Made by a program: the position numbers and the translations under genes. This document shows, one piece after another, positions 4,285-30,901 of a stretch of 33,093 nucleotides of DNA (the stretch's first letter is position 1; each line of letters begins with the position of its first letter). The notes beneath the pieces were generated by a model that did no database searches, was not told the DNA's origin, and saw nothing but the letters and a program-made list of their open reading frames with translations. Origin of the DNA: a virus; the IMG/VR virus record IMGVR_UViG_3300042559_000792, positions 1-33,093 of that record; one strand, written 5' to 3'.

Positions 4285-5352
4285 ATGGGAAAACCATTCG
4301 ACATTTCAAAGTTCCGCAAGGACATTACTAAAAGCATTCAAGGCTTGAGCATTGGATTTAACGATCCAACTGACTGGATTGGCACAGGCAACTATGCACT
4401 AAACTATCTTATCTCTGGAGACTTTAACAAAGGTATTCCGTTAGGTAAGGTCACGGTATTTGCTGGTGAATCTGGCGCAGGCAAAAGTTATATCTGCAGT
4501 GGTAACATTGTTAAAAACGCACAAGAACAAGGTATCTTTGTTATTCTTGTGGACACAGAAAATGCACTGGACGAATCGTGGCTACATGCACTGGGTGTTG
4601 ACACTGATCCAGCAAAGTTGCTTAAACTCAACATGAGCATGATTGACGATGTGGCCAAAGCAATTTCCACATTCATGATTGATTACAAAGCACTTCCTGA
4701 TGAAGAACGCATGAAGGTTCTGTGGGTAATTGATTCGTTGGGCATGTTGTTGACTCCCACAGACGTTAACCAGTTTGAAGCAGGTGACATGAAAGGTGAC
4801 ATGGGTCGCAAGCCCAAAGCACTGACAGCACTGGTTCGTAACTGTGTTAATATGTTTGGTAGTCACAATGTTGGATTGGTTGCTACTAATCATACATACG
4901 CAAGCCAAGACATGTTCGATCCCGATGACAAGATCAGTGGTGGACAGGGATTCATCTATGCATCAAGCATTGTTGTTGCCATGAAGAAAATGAAGTTGAA
5001 AGAAGATGAAGATGGTAACAAAGTAAGTGAAGTTAACGGTATTCGTGCCGGCTGTAAAGTAATGAAAACACGCTATGCTAAACCGTTTGAAGGTATGCAA
5101 GTTAAGATTCCTTACTCAACTGGTATGAGTCCACATTCTGGATTGGTTGACCTGGCAGAGAAGAAAAACATTCTCAAGAAAGAAGGCAACAGTTTGGTAT
5201 TTGTCACAAGTGATGGTGAAGTGATCAAACAGTTCCGTAAAAAATGGGAAGCAAATGAAAACGGCTGTTTAGACAAACTTATGGCAGATTTTGCCAACCA
5301 GAAAGATATCAGAGTAGTAGACGAAATTATCGACGAAAGCATCAACGAATAA
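4285..5352 (+). CDS. uvsX: UvsX, RecA-like recombinase
   Basis: A 355-residue homologue of T4 UvsX (about 390), the strand-exchange protein of phage recombination-dependent replication. The Walker A motif is GESGAGKS at 61-68. A hydrophobic strand ending VLWVIDSLGML is the Walker B region, and SGGQGFIYASSIVV resembles the RecA L2/ATPase region. The N-terminus (ITKSIQGLSIGFNDPTDWIGTGNYALN) is typical of phage UvsX. It starts after AGAGGAT. It ends with TAATG, so the next gene starts one base inside its stop. gp32 lies upstream and UvsY downstream, which fits a presynaptic-filament block. Confidence 0.95.
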   Translation: MGKPFDISKFRKDITKSIQGLSIGFNDPTDWIGTGNYALNYLISGDFNKGIPLGKVTVFAGESGAGKSYICSGNIVKNAQEQGIFVILVDTENALDESWLHALGVDTDPAKLLKLNMSMIDDVAKAISTFMIDYKALPDEERMKVLWVIDSLGMLLTPTDVNQFEAGDMKGDMGRKPKALTALVRNCVNMFGSHNVGLVATNHTYASQDMFDPDDKISGGQGFIYASSIVVAMKKMKLKEDEDGNKVSEVNGIRAGCKVMKTRYAKPFEGMQVKIPYSTGMSPHSGLVDLAEKKNILKKEGNSLVFVTSDGEVIKQFRKKWEANENGCLDKLMADFANQKDIRVVDEIIDESINE

Positions 5353-6002
5353 TGCAATCGATTGTAGTAACTGACAGTAATCCTATTGTTCGGATACGCG
5401 AGTATGCACCGGGTATTACAATCCATTGGCTAGTTGGAACAAGGTGTAATTTTGATTGTAGTTATTGTCCAGATCAATGGCATGATAAAACATCTAAAGA
5501 TTATTCATTAGAGAAATTGCAAGCGGCGTGGATTCGAATTATGTCAGCTAGCCCTAAAAAAAATATCAAATATAATTTGTCATTTTTAGGAGGCGAACCT
5601 ACTTTAAATAAAAATTTTCTTCCTTTTTTAAAATGGTTACATGAGTGTTTTGCCCAGCATCTAGGGAATGTTGGGGTTATTACCAATGGCACAGCTAGTC
5701 TAGAATATTATAAGGAAATGATAAATTATTGTGATTGGATTACATTTTCTACACATAGTGAATTTATGAAAGAAAAAAAGTTTTTCAATCTAGTAGTAAA
5801 TCTACACCAGATTGCACAAAGTCATAAATGTCTAGTATCAGTTAATATCATGGATGAGTCTTGGCATCAATCTCGTAACAAACAATACAAAACATTTTTA
5901 GAGAAACACGGAATTGTTAGCTACACTCATCCAATCAAAGATTTCGGACAAGGAAAGAAACAGTTCCCGATAAAAGTTACTAACCAAATGGAATTTTTAT
6001 GA
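5352..6002 (+). CDS. Radical SAM core domain protein
   Basis: A 216-residue protein with the radical SAM signature C32-x3-C36-x2-C39 (CNFDCSYC), which binds a [4Fe-4S] cluster. It also has GGEP at 80-83, which contacts S-adenosylmethionine, and a TNGT strand at 111-114. It stops where a C-terminal accessory domain would begin, and that domain is the next, overlapping frame (ATGA). The last codons run through GAATTTTTATGA; one extra T would fuse the two into one protein of about 322 residues, a normal size for radical SAM/SPASM enzymes. It is distinctly AT-rich beside uvsX, suggesting separate acquisition. The substrate is unknown; peptide, sugar or nucleic-acid modification are all possible. 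Confidence 0.85.
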   Translation: MQSIVVTDSNPIVRIREYAPGITIHWLVGTRCNFDCSYCPDQWHDKTSKDYSLEKLQAAWIRIMSASPKKNIKYNLSFLGGEPTLNKNFLPFLKWLHECFAQHLGNVGVITNGTASLEYYKEMINYCDWITFSTHSEFMKEKKFFNLVVNLHQIAQSHKCLVSVNIMDESWHQSRNKQYKTFLEKHGIVSYTHPIKDFGQGKKQFPIKVTNQMEFL

Positions 6003-6319
6003 ATGCTGTACTAACTGAGGATATTCATTGTAATGCCATAGTAGAATTACAAGATGGTAGTGAGATTAAAATATCTGCTAATCAATTGTATGATAACAAT
6101 TTGCATCATTGGAAAGGTTGGCATTGTAACGCTGGAGTTACAAGTATCTATATAGATGTTGATTTTTCAGTCTACTCAGGCACATGCAAAAACGACGAAT
6201 TGGGAAATCTGTTTGATGAAAATTTTAGTTTTTTAAACGATTATACAATATGCAAAAAAGAAAGATGTACTGCGTGTGCCTCAGATCTTTATGCGGGAAA
6301 ATTAGATAAAAGGAAATAA
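5999..6319 (+). CDS. SPASM/twitch-like auxiliary cluster domain, split from the radical SAM protein
   Basis: A 106-residue protein with cysteines at 11, 43, 63, 85, 90 and 93. The order GWHC-x19-C, then C-x4-C-x2-C-x-SD, resembles SPASM or twitch domains. These bind extra iron-sulfur clusters and normally sit at the C-terminus of radical SAM maturases. It begins at the ATG of the ATGA overlap with the radical SAM gene. The two may act as a heterodimer by translational coupling, or may be one gene broken by a one-base deletion in a five-T run. The T run is close to, but not exactly, a standard -1 slippery heptamer (A-TTT-TTA). Confidence 0.7.
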   Translation: MNAVLTEDIHCNAIVELQDGSEIKISANQLYDNNLHHWKGWHCNAGVTSIYIDVDFSVYSGTCKNDELGNLFDENFSFLNDYTICKKERCTACASDLYAGKLDKRK

Positions 6320-6320
6320 A

Positions 6321-6593
6321 ATGACCATTGATGTAAAATTACCCAAAGAAATTTGGGGAGAACTTAAACGCTACATAAACACAGTAGATCGTGCCGAAGC
6401 GGCAGAAACTCTAGTACAAATTTTAATGGACAATGACAGTGATGCAGAGGATATTCGAGATGCCTTTACAGGAGATCGCGATGTTAAGGCAGCTTTAACT
6501 GCATATCTTGACAATGATAAAGATTATGCCGAAGACGAAGAACCTGAGGAAGAAGAAGAAGACCACGACCAAGACGATGACTGGGAAAACTAA
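6321..6593 (+). CDS. Small acidic protein upstream of UvsY
   Basis: A 90-residue protein preceded by AAAGGAAA. The first 65 residues look helical (LPKEIWGELKRYINTVD). The last 25 are extremely acidic (DEEPEEEEEDHDQDDD). I cannot assign a family. Acidic tails in phage replication proteins often mimic DNA or bind partner proteins, as in gp32, so a regulatory role in the UvsX/UvsY system is possible. As the small gene next to a radical SAM/SPASM pair it could also be that enzyme's substrate. Both ideas are inference. It shares TAATG with uvsY. Confidence 0.75.
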   Translation: MTIDVKLPKEIWGELKRYINTVDRAEAAETLVQILMDNDSDAEDIRDAFTGDRDVKAALTAYLDNDKDYAEDEEPEEEEEDHDQDDDWEN

Positions 6594-7045
6594 TGTGGTA
6601 TAACCGCGTTGTTGCTGATCTCGGCGCCATTCCAGACTTTATTGCTCATTACGAAAATGAACTTGTTTCTGCACGACGTGACTGTGCCATTGGCGGAATA
6701 GTTGAACGAAATATCACAGCACTTCCGGGTATCACTGAGCATCGCTTTAATCAACTACAGGAGATTGAAGCAGTGCTGAACTTCCTTAACATACAACTGC
6801 GTAAGATTCGTCGACGACATTTTCAAAAGTATCTAGAAGGGTATGCTCGCGCATTGACCAGTCGAGATGCTGAAAAGTATGTGGATGGCGAGGATGAAGT
6901 AATTGATTTTGAAACCATTATCAATGAAGTTGCGCTACTACGCAATCGATTTTTGGGCATTATGAAAGCAATGGAAAGTAAAAACTTCATGTTGGGACAT
7001 GTGGTTAGACTGCGAGCAGCCGGCATGGAAGATATACAGTTATGA
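6593..7045 (+). CDS. uvsY: UvsY, recombination mediator
   Basis: A 150-residue protein matching T4 UvsY (137) in size and pattern. UvsY binds single-stranded DNA with gp32 and loads UvsX. The central basic helix (RKIRRRHFQKYLEGYA) and the C-terminal region (LLRNRFLGIMKAMESKNF, then HVVRLRAAGMEDIQL) are the parts I recognise from phage UvsY proteins. Its location two genes after uvsX and the radical SAM pair supports this. It starts inside the TAATG shared with the acidic gene and overlaps the downstream methyltransferase by ATGA. Confidence 0.8.
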   Translation: MWYNRVVADLGAIPDFIAHYENELVSARRDCAIGGIVERNITALPGITEHRFNQLQEIEAVLNFLNIQLRKIRRRHFQKYLEGYARALTSRDAEKYVDGEDEVIDFETIINEVALLRNRFLGIMKAMESKNFMLGHVVRLRAAGMEDIQL

Positions 7046-26072: not shown

Positions 26073-26980
26073 TACACATTGACTTTCAAGGCGGAGCACA
26101 CGGGAACTTCTTGGAATTTGTGTGCAACGTCATGGCCGGCGTTGAAACTGTTGGCGATCCGTTTAATGCAGCCGGAGCATCGCACAACAAACAATATCTG
26201 TCGCCGCGAGTATTTTATGCAGGGCATTATTCTTTTTATTCTATTCCATTGCAATATAATCGCGTGATTACAGTGAAAATTGAAGTGGATGATTTATTGC
26301 CATTGAGCCAGATTAGTTTGTTACGAGCCGGAGACTACGGTTATGACAACGATGAGTTAGAAATCAATACCTACACCAAACTCAACAATAAAAATTATCA
26401 ATGGGTACTAGATAATATTTTAAATTCATTCTTTACTGATCAAATAAAAAATAGCTATGATAGAGTAAAAGATCCCGGGTGGCCCGATGTCAACTGCTTA
26501 GAGGATTTTCAACACCTGCCCGAACACATACGTCGAGAATGCATGGAAGTTCATAACTTAGAATTATTAGAACTTGGCCCTGTTACTCCCGATTGTCCAA
26601 GGCATATTCTTAGAGAGTTTTTTCAGATAGGATTTGAAAATCCTGCCAACGCAGGGTTTATAACACAACAACAACTGATTCGTTACGACGAATGGGTTGA
26701 TGTGTATGAGTTTCCGTTTAGTGCCTTTTACAACAAACAGCGATTCTTGGATCAGCTCACTCAGATTGCAATGTGGGCAGGAATACAGTATACTACACAA
26801 CAGCAAGCGGAACAGTTGCATACACTGTTTTTAGAAAAACAACCGTACAAGGATTCAAAAAATAAATGTGATGATCTTGTGTTGAGAATACAAAACAATG
26901 CACTGACGCACATTCCGGTAGTAGATCTACTAGAAGAAGCATACATCAATGCCAAATTGGAACAAAATTATTTTTTATGA
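26069..26980 (+). CDS. Conserved-looking unknown protein, partner of the amidinotransferase
   Basis: A 303-residue protein starting in the ATGA overlap at 26069; a frame reaching back to 25934 gives a Cys/Arg-rich extension that is only the upstream gene in another frame. The N-terminal MIHIDFQGGAHGNFLEFVCN has a P-loop-like turn as in sulfotransferase-type folds. A late segment (FPFSAFYNKQRFLDQLTQIA, then MWAGI) resembles the C-terminal part of such enzymes. No PAPS site can be proved. ATGA coupling to the amidinotransferase, and the shared lower GC, suggest the two act together. Confidence 0.65.
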   Translation: MIHIDFQGGAHGNFLEFVCNVMAGVETVGDPFNAAGASHNKQYLSPRVFYAGHYSFYSIPLQYNRVITVKIEVDDLLPLSQISLLRAGDYGYDNDELEINTYTKLNNKNYQWVLDNILNSFFTDQIKNSYDRVKDPGWPDVNCLEDFQHLPEHIRRECMEVHNLELLELGPVTPDCPRHILREFFQIGFENPANAGFITQQQLIRYDEWVDVYEFPFSAFYNKQRFLDQLTQIAMWAGIQYTTQQQAEQLHTLFLEKQPYKDSKNKCDDLVLRIQNNALTHIPVVDLLEEAYINAKLEQNYFL

Positions 26981-28116
26981 ACAATAAATTTTCAGTATAT
27001 CAACACTGGGATCCACTAAAAGTATGTGTGGTTGGGCACAGTTATCCCCCTGAGTTTTATTCATGGATCACAGTACCGCATGTAAGATCGCTTTTTGAAA
27101 AAATTGCAATCGAAACTGAGGAAGACTATCAAAAAATAATACAAAAACTCCAGGAGTTTGGTGTTGAGGTTTTGCGCCCTACGTTACCAACCAACACTTT
27201 CATTGGTGGCAAGCACTATCCGCCTCCTATGACTCCCAGAGATCACATGATAATGATTGGTGAAACATTTTACACAGGCTATAGATTAAATTTTAAAGAA
27301 TTCTACAAAGCTGTTAGGGATGAATCATGGCCGCAATGCGATTCGTTTGATGAATTTTTAACATTGCCGACTTGGATACAAAACGAATGCAATGAGCAGC
27401 ATCAGTTGACTGAGTTACGTAGTTTTTATTCAAGCTATAATAATATCTTTGATAGGATTACACGCCAAGGTAATGTTATTAAAGAAACAAATATTTCTCA
27501 AGCGCCTGGCGCATTTATTACACGGGTTGGAAAAGATTTATATTTTGGTACAAGTTCTTACAACCAAGATCAATCCGCATATTTTAAAAAAATCCAAACT
27601 GAATTTGCCCACACACGCAATCACATTGTGAATACCGGAGGGCACAGTGACGGAACCTACTGCCCAGTTGCTCCAGGATTAATTATAAGTCTTTATGATG
27701 TACCCACTTATGCAAACACTTTTCCAGACTGGGAAGTGGTTTATCTTCCAGGACAAAGTTGGAACAAAGTTAGTCCGTTTTTAAAATTAAAACAACAAAA
27801 CAAAGGCAAATGGTGGATTCCTGGATTCGAGCAAGACCAAGCAGTTATCAGTGTAGTAGAACAATGGCTAGGTCATTGGACTGGTTATGTAGAAGAAACT
27901 GTGTTTGATGTTAACATGTTGATGATCGACCCTAAAAATGTCATGGTGTTCAACTACAACAAACAGGTGTTTGACGCACTAGAACGCTATGGCATTACTC
28001 CGCACATTGTACCATTCCGTCATAGATATTTCTGGGATGGTGGCATACATTGCATTACAACAGATCTGCACCGACAAGGTACAATGCAAGATTATTTTTT
28101 AGACAAAAACACATGA
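26977..28116 (+). CDS. Amidinotransferase (glycine amidinotransferase-like)
   Basis: A 379-residue member of the guanidino-modifying (amidinotransferase/deiminase) superfamily, which moves an amidino group from arginine to an amine. TPRDHMIMIGETFYTG lies at about 86-101. GGHSDGTYCPVAPGLIIS holds the active-site His (H223) and aligns with HIDATF...GPGIVLS of animal glycine amidinotransferase. FDVNMLMIDPKNVMV precedes DGGIHCITTDLHRQGTMQDY with the nucleophile C359. By my manual alignment the catalytic Asp of the family (ADF) is replaced (GAF, about 178-180), which needs checking. The acceptor is unknown. Such a gene in a phage replication operon is unusual. Confidence 0.82.
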   Translation: MNNKFSVYQHWDPLKVCVVGHSYPPEFYSWITVPHVRSLFEKIAIETEEDYQKIIQKLQEFGVEVLRPTLPTNTFIGGKHYPPPMTPRDHMIMIGETFYTGYRLNFKEFYKAVRDESWPQCDSFDEFLTLPTWIQNECNEQHQLTELRSFYSSYNNIFDRITRQGNVIKETNISQAPGAFITRVGKDLYFGTSSYNQDQSAYFKKIQTEFAHTRNHIVNTGGHSDGTYCPVAPGLIISLYDVPTYANTFPDWEVVYLPGQSWNKVSPFLKLKQQNKGKWWIPGFEQDQAVISVVEQWLGHWTGYVEETVFDVNMLMIDPKNVMVFNYNKQVFDALERYGITPHIVPFRHRYFWDGGIHCITTDLHRQGTMQDYFLDKNT

Positions 28117-28691
28117 GTGCAGACATTGATTTAGATTTTGCCAACAGAGAAGCAGTACTGAAATTGATTCAGCACACTCCTGCACGTCAAACAGTGCAAG
28201 GACAAGTGCGTCGGCACAACTCCGGGGTGTATGTCACAGACATCCCCTTGGATCCTGTCAATCACTGTGCAGCCATAGACTACGAAGCAGCAGAGCAACT
28301 GGGCTATTTTAAAATTGATCTGTTAAACATGAGTGTTTATCAGCTGATCACCAGTCCCGAACACTATGCTACAGCAGTGGCTACAGAACCAGAATGGACA
28401 AGATTATGGCAAGAACCTGCGTGGGCCCAACAGCTAGCCCATGTGGGCAACTATACAGACCTGCTGAACGCAATGCGCCCAGATAGTATCCCAAGAATGG
28501 CAGCGTTCATTAGTATTATTCGTCCGGGCAAAGCACACTTGCAACGACAACCCTGGGACGTAGTGTTTGAAAGTGTGTGGGATGGTGACGAAAGTCGAGG
28601 CTACACATTTAAACATGCTCACGCAATTAGTTACGCAGCCTTGGTGGCATTACACATGAACTTGCTCAGTCCATCCGTCGCACAAGTGTAA
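28113..28691 (+). CDS. Miniature DnaE-like (C-family DNA polymerase) core protein
   Basis: A 192-residue protein starting in the ATGA at 28113. It carries, in order, the hallmarks of bacterial polymerase III alpha. ADIDLDF (D6, D8) matches the palm PDFDVDF. VRRHNSGVYVTDIPL matches GKHAGGVVIAP. LGYFKIDLLNMSVYQLI (D69) matches LVKFDFLGLRTLTII. MRPDSIPRMAAFISIIRPG (121-139) matches QPDCFEDMIALVALFRPG. FKHAHAISYAALVAL (166-180) matches FNKSHSAAYALVSY. All three catalytic aspartates are present, yet PHP, thumb and most of the fingers are absent (about 1,160 residues in E. coli DnaE). Whether it polymerises, regulates or mimics DnaE is unknown. Confidence 0.75.
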   Translation: MSADIDLDFANREAVLKLIQHTPARQTVQGQVRRHNSGVYVTDIPLDPVNHCAAIDYEAAEQLGYFKIDLLNMSVYQLITSPEHYATAVATEPEWTRLWQEPAWAQQLAHVGNYTDLLNAMRPDSIPRMAAFISIIRPGKAHLQRQPWDVVFESVWDGDESRGYTFKHAHAISYAALVALHMNLLSPSVAQV

Positions 28692-30221: not shown

Positions 30222-30240
30222 TTTGTTTTAACTGTTATTT

Positions 30241-30248
30241 GATAAATA
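30241..30248 (+). promoter_or_regulatory. Late promoter box ahead of the homing endonuclease
   Basis: GATAAATA, five bases before the ATG at 30254. Homing endonuclease genes in T4 often carry their own late promoters, so this fits a mobile gene bringing its own promoter. Confidence 0.55.
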
Positions 30249-30253
30249 GGTGT

Positions 30254-30901
30254 ATGAAATACATCTATATTATTACATCACCATCCGGCAAACAATACGT
30301 TGGCAAAAGCACTATTGGCCCAACTCAAAAGTCTATACTTTATCAATCAGCCGCAAAATATTTTCCAAGCATAAAGCGTCCTATCCTCGAAGCCATTCGA
30401 AAATATGGGTGGGTAAACATGAAATTTAAGATTATAGAACAAAATATTAACTGGTCTTCGGATGAGTTAAACGAAAGAGAAAAATACTGGATACAAAAAT
30501 ATGAAACGTTACAAACTGGTTATAATGTAACCGCCGGCGGCGACGGCCATGATTCGGACTCTGCAAAACTATTTTGGCAAAATGTATCAACTGAGTGGAA
30601 AGAAAAACGGGCATTAAATTGCAGTACTGGTCAAAAACGCAGATATAATAATTCTAAAGACTCTGCCGAAACAAAAAAACGTAAAAGCGATTCGCATAAA
30701 GGAACTTATAAAATAACGTCACCAGATGGCAAAGAATGGACAACTAATTTAGGACTCAAAGAATTTGCCGAACTACATAAAGATGAACTAAAAATAACGT
30801 ATTGGGGCTTGTTCTCGGCGTATAGAAAGTGTTATAATAATGCACAACCGTTAGTTAAAAGAAAAAATGAAAATTTGTGGAAAGTAATACGCATTGATTG
30901 A
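30254..30901 (+). CDS. GIY-YIG homing endonuclease (Seg-like)
   Basis: A 215-residue free-standing homing endonuclease. The catalytic module opens YIYIITSPSGKQYVGKS (the GIY and YIG elements at about 3-5 and 15-17), with an Arg in ILEAIRKYGW, a Glu in LNEREKYWIQKYE, and TGYNVTAGGDG. The C-terminal KITSPDGKEWTTNLGLKEFA resembles the NUMOD-type DNA-binding repeat of such enzymes. The start at 30254 follows the late box; a frame from 30239 would begin upstream of it. It is clearly more AT-rich than the genes on both sides, and it overlaps the primase by eight bases, as expected for a mobile gene inserted by the primase locus. Confidence 0.88.
   Translation: MKYIYIITSPSGKQYVGKSTIGPTQKSILYQSAAKYFPSIKRPILEAIRKYGWVNMKFKIIEQNINWSSDELNEREKYWIQKYETLQTGYNVTAGGDGHDSDSAKLFWQNVSTEWKEKRALNCSTGQKRRYNNSKDSAETKKRKSDSHKGTYKITSPDGKEWTTNLGLKEFAELHKDELKITYWGLFSAYRKCYNNAQPLVKRKNENLWKVIRID

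What the first reader, a model, noticed from the sequence alone, without database searches (positions are those of the whole stretch)
5352..6319. Radical SAM enzyme split from its SPASM-like domain at a T5 run, between uvsX and uvsY
Seen: CNFDCSYC and GGEP in the first frame, six cysteines in the second, and an ATGA overlap. GAATTTTTATGA lies at the junction, and one added T would fuse both into about 322 residues. Options: a genuine two-subunit enzyme, a -1 frameshift at A-TTT-TTA, a recent deletion, or a homopolymer sequencing error. A peptide-maturase-like enzyme inside the recombination block of a phage is unusual in itself.
Basis: partly seen in the sequence, partly recalled or inferred. 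Interest (0 to 1): 0.72.

Follow-up and report, generated by a model that had tools for sequence, protein, structure and literature searches.

The report
Two-gene radical SAM enzyme in phages
A radical SAM enzyme that bacteria make as one protein is encoded in this phage, and in a large family of related phages, as two overlapping genes, one for the catalytic core and one for its extra iron-sulphur domain, and the split is old and conserved rather than a sequencing error.

Summary
In detail: ORF1 (5352-6002, 216 aa, radical SAM core) and ORF2 (5999-6319, 106 aa, Cys-rich) overlap at ATGA. Three contigs repeat the junction exactly. A 90%-identical lineage keeps the split although the T5 run is broken (TTTTC). 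Among 75 non-redundant loci with both domains, 66 are split. All 66 have an ATG or TTG start for ORF2 within about 25 nt of the ORF1 stop. Start codon, overlap length and frame offset vary, and in two loci the start lies after the stop, so neither a homopolymer error nor a programmed frameshift fits. Both halves evolve under purifying selection. All 27 bacterial-genome homologues in which both domains were detected are single chains. In a confident model of a phage single-chain relative, the disordered linker lies at the split point. ORF2 has four near-invariant cysteines: twitch-like rather than full SPASM. The pair is an accessory cassette in the uvsX-uvsY block; most relatives of that block lack it. 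Radical SAM genes in T4-like phages are known; a conserved core/auxiliary-domain split is, as far as I could find, not described. Substrate unknown; heterodimer inferred.

The parts
5352..6002 (+). ORF1: radical SAM catalytic core (216 aa); its ATG overlaps the uvsX stop (TAATG)
   Evidence: homologues
5445..5468 (+). [quoted passage not shown]
   Evidence: C32, C36 and C39 invariant
5589..5600 (+). GGEP motif (SAM-binding GGE); the P is not conserved in relatives
5994..5998 (+). T5 run, not conserved (TTTTC in the 90% lineage)
5999..6002 (+). ATGA: ORF2 start overlapping ORF1 stop
5999..6319 (+). ORF2: twitch-like auxiliary-cluster subunit (106 aa); cysteines C43 (6125), C63 (6185), C85 (6251), C90 (6266), less conserved C93 (6275)
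4285..5352 (+). uvsX recombinase, upstream neighbour
6321..6593 (+). acidic 90-aa protein of the uvsX-uvsY block, present also in phages without the radical SAM pair
6593..7045 (+). uvsY

Best explanation
The two ORFs are the two subunits of one radical SAM enzyme made by ancient gene fission. ORF1 is the (partial TIM-barrel) core that holds the SAM-cleaving [4Fe-4S] cluster. ORF2 is the domain that single-chain relatives carry at the C terminus; it has four near-invariant cysteines that fit one auxiliary [4Fe-4S] cluster. ORF2 is translated from its own start codon inside or next to the ORF1 stop, which would couple its synthesis to ORF1. Steps shown here (by sequence comparison): separate frames conserved across the family, own start codons, selection on both halves, collinearity with single-chain homologues. 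Steps inferred: docking of ORF2 onto the ORF1 barrel as in the single-chain model, cluster binding, catalysis, translational coupling. The substrate is unknown.
For: Same junction in three further contigs at 100% and in six at 90/84% aa identity with the T run broken. 66 of 75 non-redundant loci split. In all 66 an ATG (27) or TTG (39) lies within -26..+25 nt of the ORF1 stop; TTG is replaced by ATG at the same site in L188, L196, L201 and L286, and lost with an ATG gained at the next codon in L266 and L294; the start lies after the ORF1 stop in L197 (+4) and L246 (+19); at least 6 TTG/ATG changes on the tree. Shine-Dalgarno-like 4-mers upstream of the start in 47 of 66 against 5.6% at control places, 37 of 38 for TTG and 10 of 27 for ATG, so weak start codons go with strong ribosome sites. 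dN/dS 0.21 and 0.23 for ORF1 and ORF2 against L028; 0.05-0.30 in further close pairs. 27 of 27 bacterial-genome loci in which both domains were detected are one chain; Photobacterium and Vibrio plasmid homologues align end to end with ORF1 followed by ORF2. AlphaFold2: ORF2 alone pLDDT 91.6; L277 single chain pLDDT 91.6, pTM 0.88, very low confidence only at the linker, residues 194-206. Its PDB matches include BlsE, MoaA, SpeY (twitch), SuiB and EpeE. BFVD holds a 206-aa and a 100-aa viral protein as separate entries matching the two halves.
Against: No protein-level data. No two-chain prediction could be run. Foldseek of ORF2 alone found nothing in the PDB. The alignment behind the L277 model placed some ORF2-only rows wrongly, although confidence was high. 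AAAGG also encodes a conserved Lys-Gly of ORF1, so the ribosome-site signal is partly confounded. Nine of 75 rows are single chains, four of them nested in the split clade. L233 and L236 have an ORF1-like gene without a detected ORF2.
Confidence: 0.8

Rival explanations
1. Programmed frameshifting makes a fused enzyme: -1 at A-TTT-TTA in the window, +1 at AAT-CTT-G in the majority of relatives.
For: A shift of the right sign would fuse the frames; AAT(C/T)TTG is strongly conserved in the TTG lineages.
Against: A-TTT-TTA is absent in the 90% lineage and in L171/L173. The required sign differs between lineages. In the relatives the conserved TTG changes to ATG at the same site or the start moves by one codon. 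In L197 and L246 ORF1 stops before ORF2 starts, so no shift at the overlap could fuse them. The AAAGG spacing suits initiation at TTG (inference).
Confidence: 0.05
2. ORF2 is a separate iron-sulphur protein or electron carrier that works in trans with ORF1 or other radical SAM enzymes rather than as a fixed subunit.
For: ORF2 is predicted to fold alone. In L232 and L234 an ORF2-like domain is fused to the N terminus of the next radical SAM gene, so the domain is portable.
Against: Close adjacency or overlap in 66 loci, nested refusions, and collinearity with single-chain enzymes favour a dedicated partner.
Confidence: 0.12
3. Sequencing or assembly homopolymer error, or a recent frameshift in a decaying gene.
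For: A T5 run lies at the junction; one extra T would fuse the frames in the window.
Against: Repeated in separate assemblies, conserved in a lineage without the run and throughout a deeply diverged family, with purifying selection on both halves.
Confidence: 0.02

Closest known systems
STM4011 family radical SAM protein (NCBIfam NF038073)
   Same: The one family model that matches both halves, in order; 44 of 66 ORF2 members match it
   Different: Single chain of about 278 residues; scores are far below its cut-off (26.5 against 200 bits for ORF2), so this is kinship, not membership
SPASM/twitch radical SAM enzymes (BlsE, SpeY, EpeE, SuiB, MoaA)
   Same: Core plus C-terminal auxiliary-cluster domain; both domains of the L277 model align to BlsE, EpeE and SuiB
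   Different: Known members carry the auxiliary cluster in a C-terminal extension of the same polypeptide (PMC10470005); here it is a separate gene product with only four near-invariant cysteines
Vibrionaceae single-chain radical SAM next to HlyD and C39 peptidase-transporter (L018, L019, L088, L089, L115)
   Same: Homologous over both domains
   Different: One chain; exporter, and mostly a Gly-rich small peptide gene, next to it; the window pair has neither beside it
Split phage genes that work as assembled enzymes (Aeh1 nrdA, phage 25 gene 43, T4 topoisomerase; PMC2988022)
   Same: A single-chain enzyme is made from two phage genes
   Different: Those splits are described as arising with a homing endonuclease or untranslated spacer in single phages; this one is a conserved overlap across a whole family
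Radical SAM genes of Campylobacter phages CP220/CPt10 (PMC2853527) and a T4-like TARA phage with 12 radical SAM genes (PMC5332604)
   Same: Radical SAM genes in T4-related phages; fold matches to CP21, CP220 and CPt10 proteins
   Different: The passages read do not describe a split core and auxiliary domain

Membership tests
Radical SAM superfamily (PF04055) | CX3CX2C and GGE motifs in the core domain | tested here: met
   PF04055 E 9e-10 above cut-off; motif residues invariant in 14 homologues
SPASM subfamily (PF13186) | C-terminal domain with the SPASM cysteine set for two auxiliary clusters | tested here: not met
   1 of 66 ORF2 members matches, E 0.024; four near-invariant cysteines
Twitch-type radical SAM | C-terminal domain with one auxiliary cluster | tested here: inconclusive
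   Cysteine count fits; fold match to SpeY covers about 180 columns only; cluster binding not testable here
STM4011 family (NF038073) | Score above the curated cut-off of 200 bits | tested here: not met
   24.7 and 26.5 bits for the two halves
Viperin (NF038283) | Score above the curated cut-off of 180 bits over the whole protein | tested here: not met
   54.9 bits over the core only
Programmed frameshift gene | Conserved slippery site and constant frame relation | tested here: not met
   Site not conserved, both offsets occur, starts after stops in two loci
Two-subunit enzyme | The two products form a complex | not testable with these tools
   No complex prediction or experiment available

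The most novel reading that the evidence does not exclude
The auxiliary-cluster domain is a detachable, exchangeable subunit: phages carry a mobile two-gene radical SAM cassette whose auxiliary subunit can serve, or be re-fused to, different catalytic cores (ORF2-type domain at the N terminus of the next radical SAM gene in L232/L234), possibly acting on a protein of the recombination block into which it inserts.
Probability: 0.12. Interest if true: 0.8.

Novelty: new variant of a known kind. Interest (0 to 1): 0.57.

Why it matters
In known SPASM/twitch enzymes the auxiliary cluster sits on the same chain as the SAM cluster, and its role is described as largely enigmatic (PMC10470005). A natural two-protein version would let one leave out, mutate or swap the auxiliary subunit without breaking the core, and so test directly what the auxiliary cluster does. 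It also warns that annotation leaves the small subunit as an 'uncharacterized protein'.

Tried and rejected
Homopolymer error, recent deletion, -1 frameshift (window) and +1 frameshift (majority of relatives): rejected by comparison. The acidic 90-aa neighbour as a dedicated substrate: rejected, since it is present in the same block without a radical SAM gene in 69 of 75 loci that hold uvsX and uvsY. Phage isolates: no match above 43% coverage in INPHARED for ORF1, none for ORF2 or for a relative's ORF1. Foldseek of ORF2 alone against the PDB: nothing. Literature searches for a split or two-polypeptide SPASM/twitch enzyme: no such report in the held library. All split rows as one clade was rejected by the AU test (p 1e-5), so single chains nested in the clade are read as refusions (inference).

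Full report
OBSERVATION. ORF1 (5352-6002) and ORF2 (5999-6319) are as described. ORF1 is a radical SAM core. The STM4011 single-chain family matches ORF1 in its N-terminal part and ORF2 in its C-terminal part. Neighbours are uvsX and uvsY. The ORF1 start overlaps the uvsX stop (TAATG) and one base separates ORF2 from the next gene, so the cassette consists of exactly two genes.

NOT AN ERROR. In IMG/VR three further contigs carry the identical junction and six carry a lineage at 90% (ORF1) and 84% (ORF2) amino-acid identity. In that lineage the run reads CTTTTC instead of TTTTT and the ATGA overlap is intact. Between the two lineages dN/dS is 0.21 for ORF1 and 0.23 for ORF2; further close pairs give 0.05 to 0.30.

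AN OLD SPLIT. With wider searches I scored every locus with profiles of ORF1 and ORF2. After removing near-copies (under 90% identity) 75 rows with both domains remained, two of them Photobacterium and Vibrio plasmid proteins added as outgroup: 66 split, 9 single chain. The maximum-likelihood tree puts 64 split rows and four single chains in one clade (bootstrap/SH-aLRT 99/98); holding the split rows together without those single chains is rejected (AU p 1e-5). I read L277 and L228/L230/L231 as refusions (inference; recurrent fission is the alternative). All 27 bacterial-genome loci in which both domains were detected are one chain.

HOW ORF2 IS MADE. All 66 split loci have an ATG (27) or TTG (39) in frame with ORF2 within -26..+25 nt of the ORF1 stop; random stretches of that size in the same phase hold a start codon 78% of the time, so presence alone is modest evidence. 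Stronger: the start codon turns over at the same site (TTG to ATG in L188, L196, L201, L286), shifts one codon (L266, L294), or lies after the stop (L197, L246); the overlap ranges from 26 nt to none; the frame offset is +1 in 61 and +2 in 5 rows. TTG starts nearly always have a Shine-Dalgarno-like 4-mer (37 of 38 as counted by the script), ATG starts in 10 of 27; control 5.6%. The rule in that script mis-picked L047 (a downstream GTG instead of its TTG). The 4-mer overlaps a conserved Lys-Gly of ORF1, so this is partly confounded, and rows are not phylogenetically independent. These facts fit initiation coupled to ORF1 termination and do not fit a slippery site.

WHAT THE PARTS ARE. ORF2 has four near-invariant cysteines (C43, C63, C85, C90) and a fifth in 59 of 66, the number expected for one auxiliary cluster. 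AlphaFold2 folds ORF2 alone with mean pLDDT 91.6. A phage single-chain relative (L277) gives pLDDT 91.6 and pTM 0.88, with the only very-low-confidence stretch at residues 194-206, between the domains, where the split lies. The alignment used for L277 had some ORF2-only rows misplaced (seen). Its best PDB matches are BlsE, MoaA, SpeY, viperin-like enzymes, SuiB and EpeE. BFVD holds a 206-aa protein (41% identity) and a 100-aa 'uncharacterized protein' (45%) as separate entries.

CONTEXT. uvsX lies in the retrieved stretch in 37 of 66 split loci and uvsY in 34 (many stretches are short). The pair sits after uvsX, after the acidic gene or after uvsY; elsewhere it sits beside an SbcC-like gene (L193), other radical SAM genes (L191, L210, L226, L232, L234) or unrelated genes. 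Of 75 loci with uvsX, the acidic gene and uvsY, 69 lack it. It is therefore accessory cargo, not part of the recombination machinery, and the acidic neighbour is not a dedicated substrate. Vibrionaceae single-chain homologues lie next to HlyD and a C39 peptidase-transporter, and mostly a small Gly-rich peptide gene, which suggests peptide modification there; carrying that over to the phage enzyme is a guess.

KNOWN AND NEW. Radical SAM genes in T4-related phages are known (PMC2853527, PMC5332604, PMC7029224) and split phage enzymes that work are known (PMC2988022). The held library gave no report of a radical SAM enzyme whose auxiliary-cluster domain is a separate conserved gene; subscription papers are not covered.

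Noticed in passing
L232:2966-3907 and L234:3039-4004: An ORF2-type domain lies at the N terminus of a radical SAM protein, upstream of a further split pair in an array of radical SAM genes: a permuted arrangement of the same two domains.
   Followed up: partly
window 26977-28116: 379-aa protein whose C-terminal part matches amidinotransferases (HsvA, SxtG, arginine:glycine amidinotransferase; E 1e-11); a putative glycine amidinotransferase is also reported in the radical SAM clusters of phages CP220/CPt10 (PMC2853527).
   Followed up: partly
window 6321-6593: Acidic 90-aa protein of unknown function next to uvsX and uvsY; 562 candidate stretches in IMG/VR encode relatives, and it remains when the radical SAM pair is absent.
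   Followed up: partly
L207 (and L208, L209, L238): A lineage (contigs up to 329 kb) in which ORF1 ends early at an in-frame stop while ORF2 stays open: apparent decay of the catalytic half. Intact copies exist in relatives.
   Followed up: no
window 28050-28691 and 30239-30901: A 213-aa DNA-polymerase-like piece (phrog_11778, E 6e-51) and a homing-endonuclease-like gene upstream of a primase-like gene: possibly a split polymerase gene in the same phage.
   Followed up: no
L233:3884-4630 and L236:3884-4630: ORF1-like gene with no ORF2 detected, followed by an ORF that looks like a PP-loop ATPase by eye.
   Followed up: no
L191 and L291: The frame relation changed to a 4-nt TTGA overlap with a longer ORF1 tail, inside a clade that otherwise has the +1 offset.
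   Followed up: no
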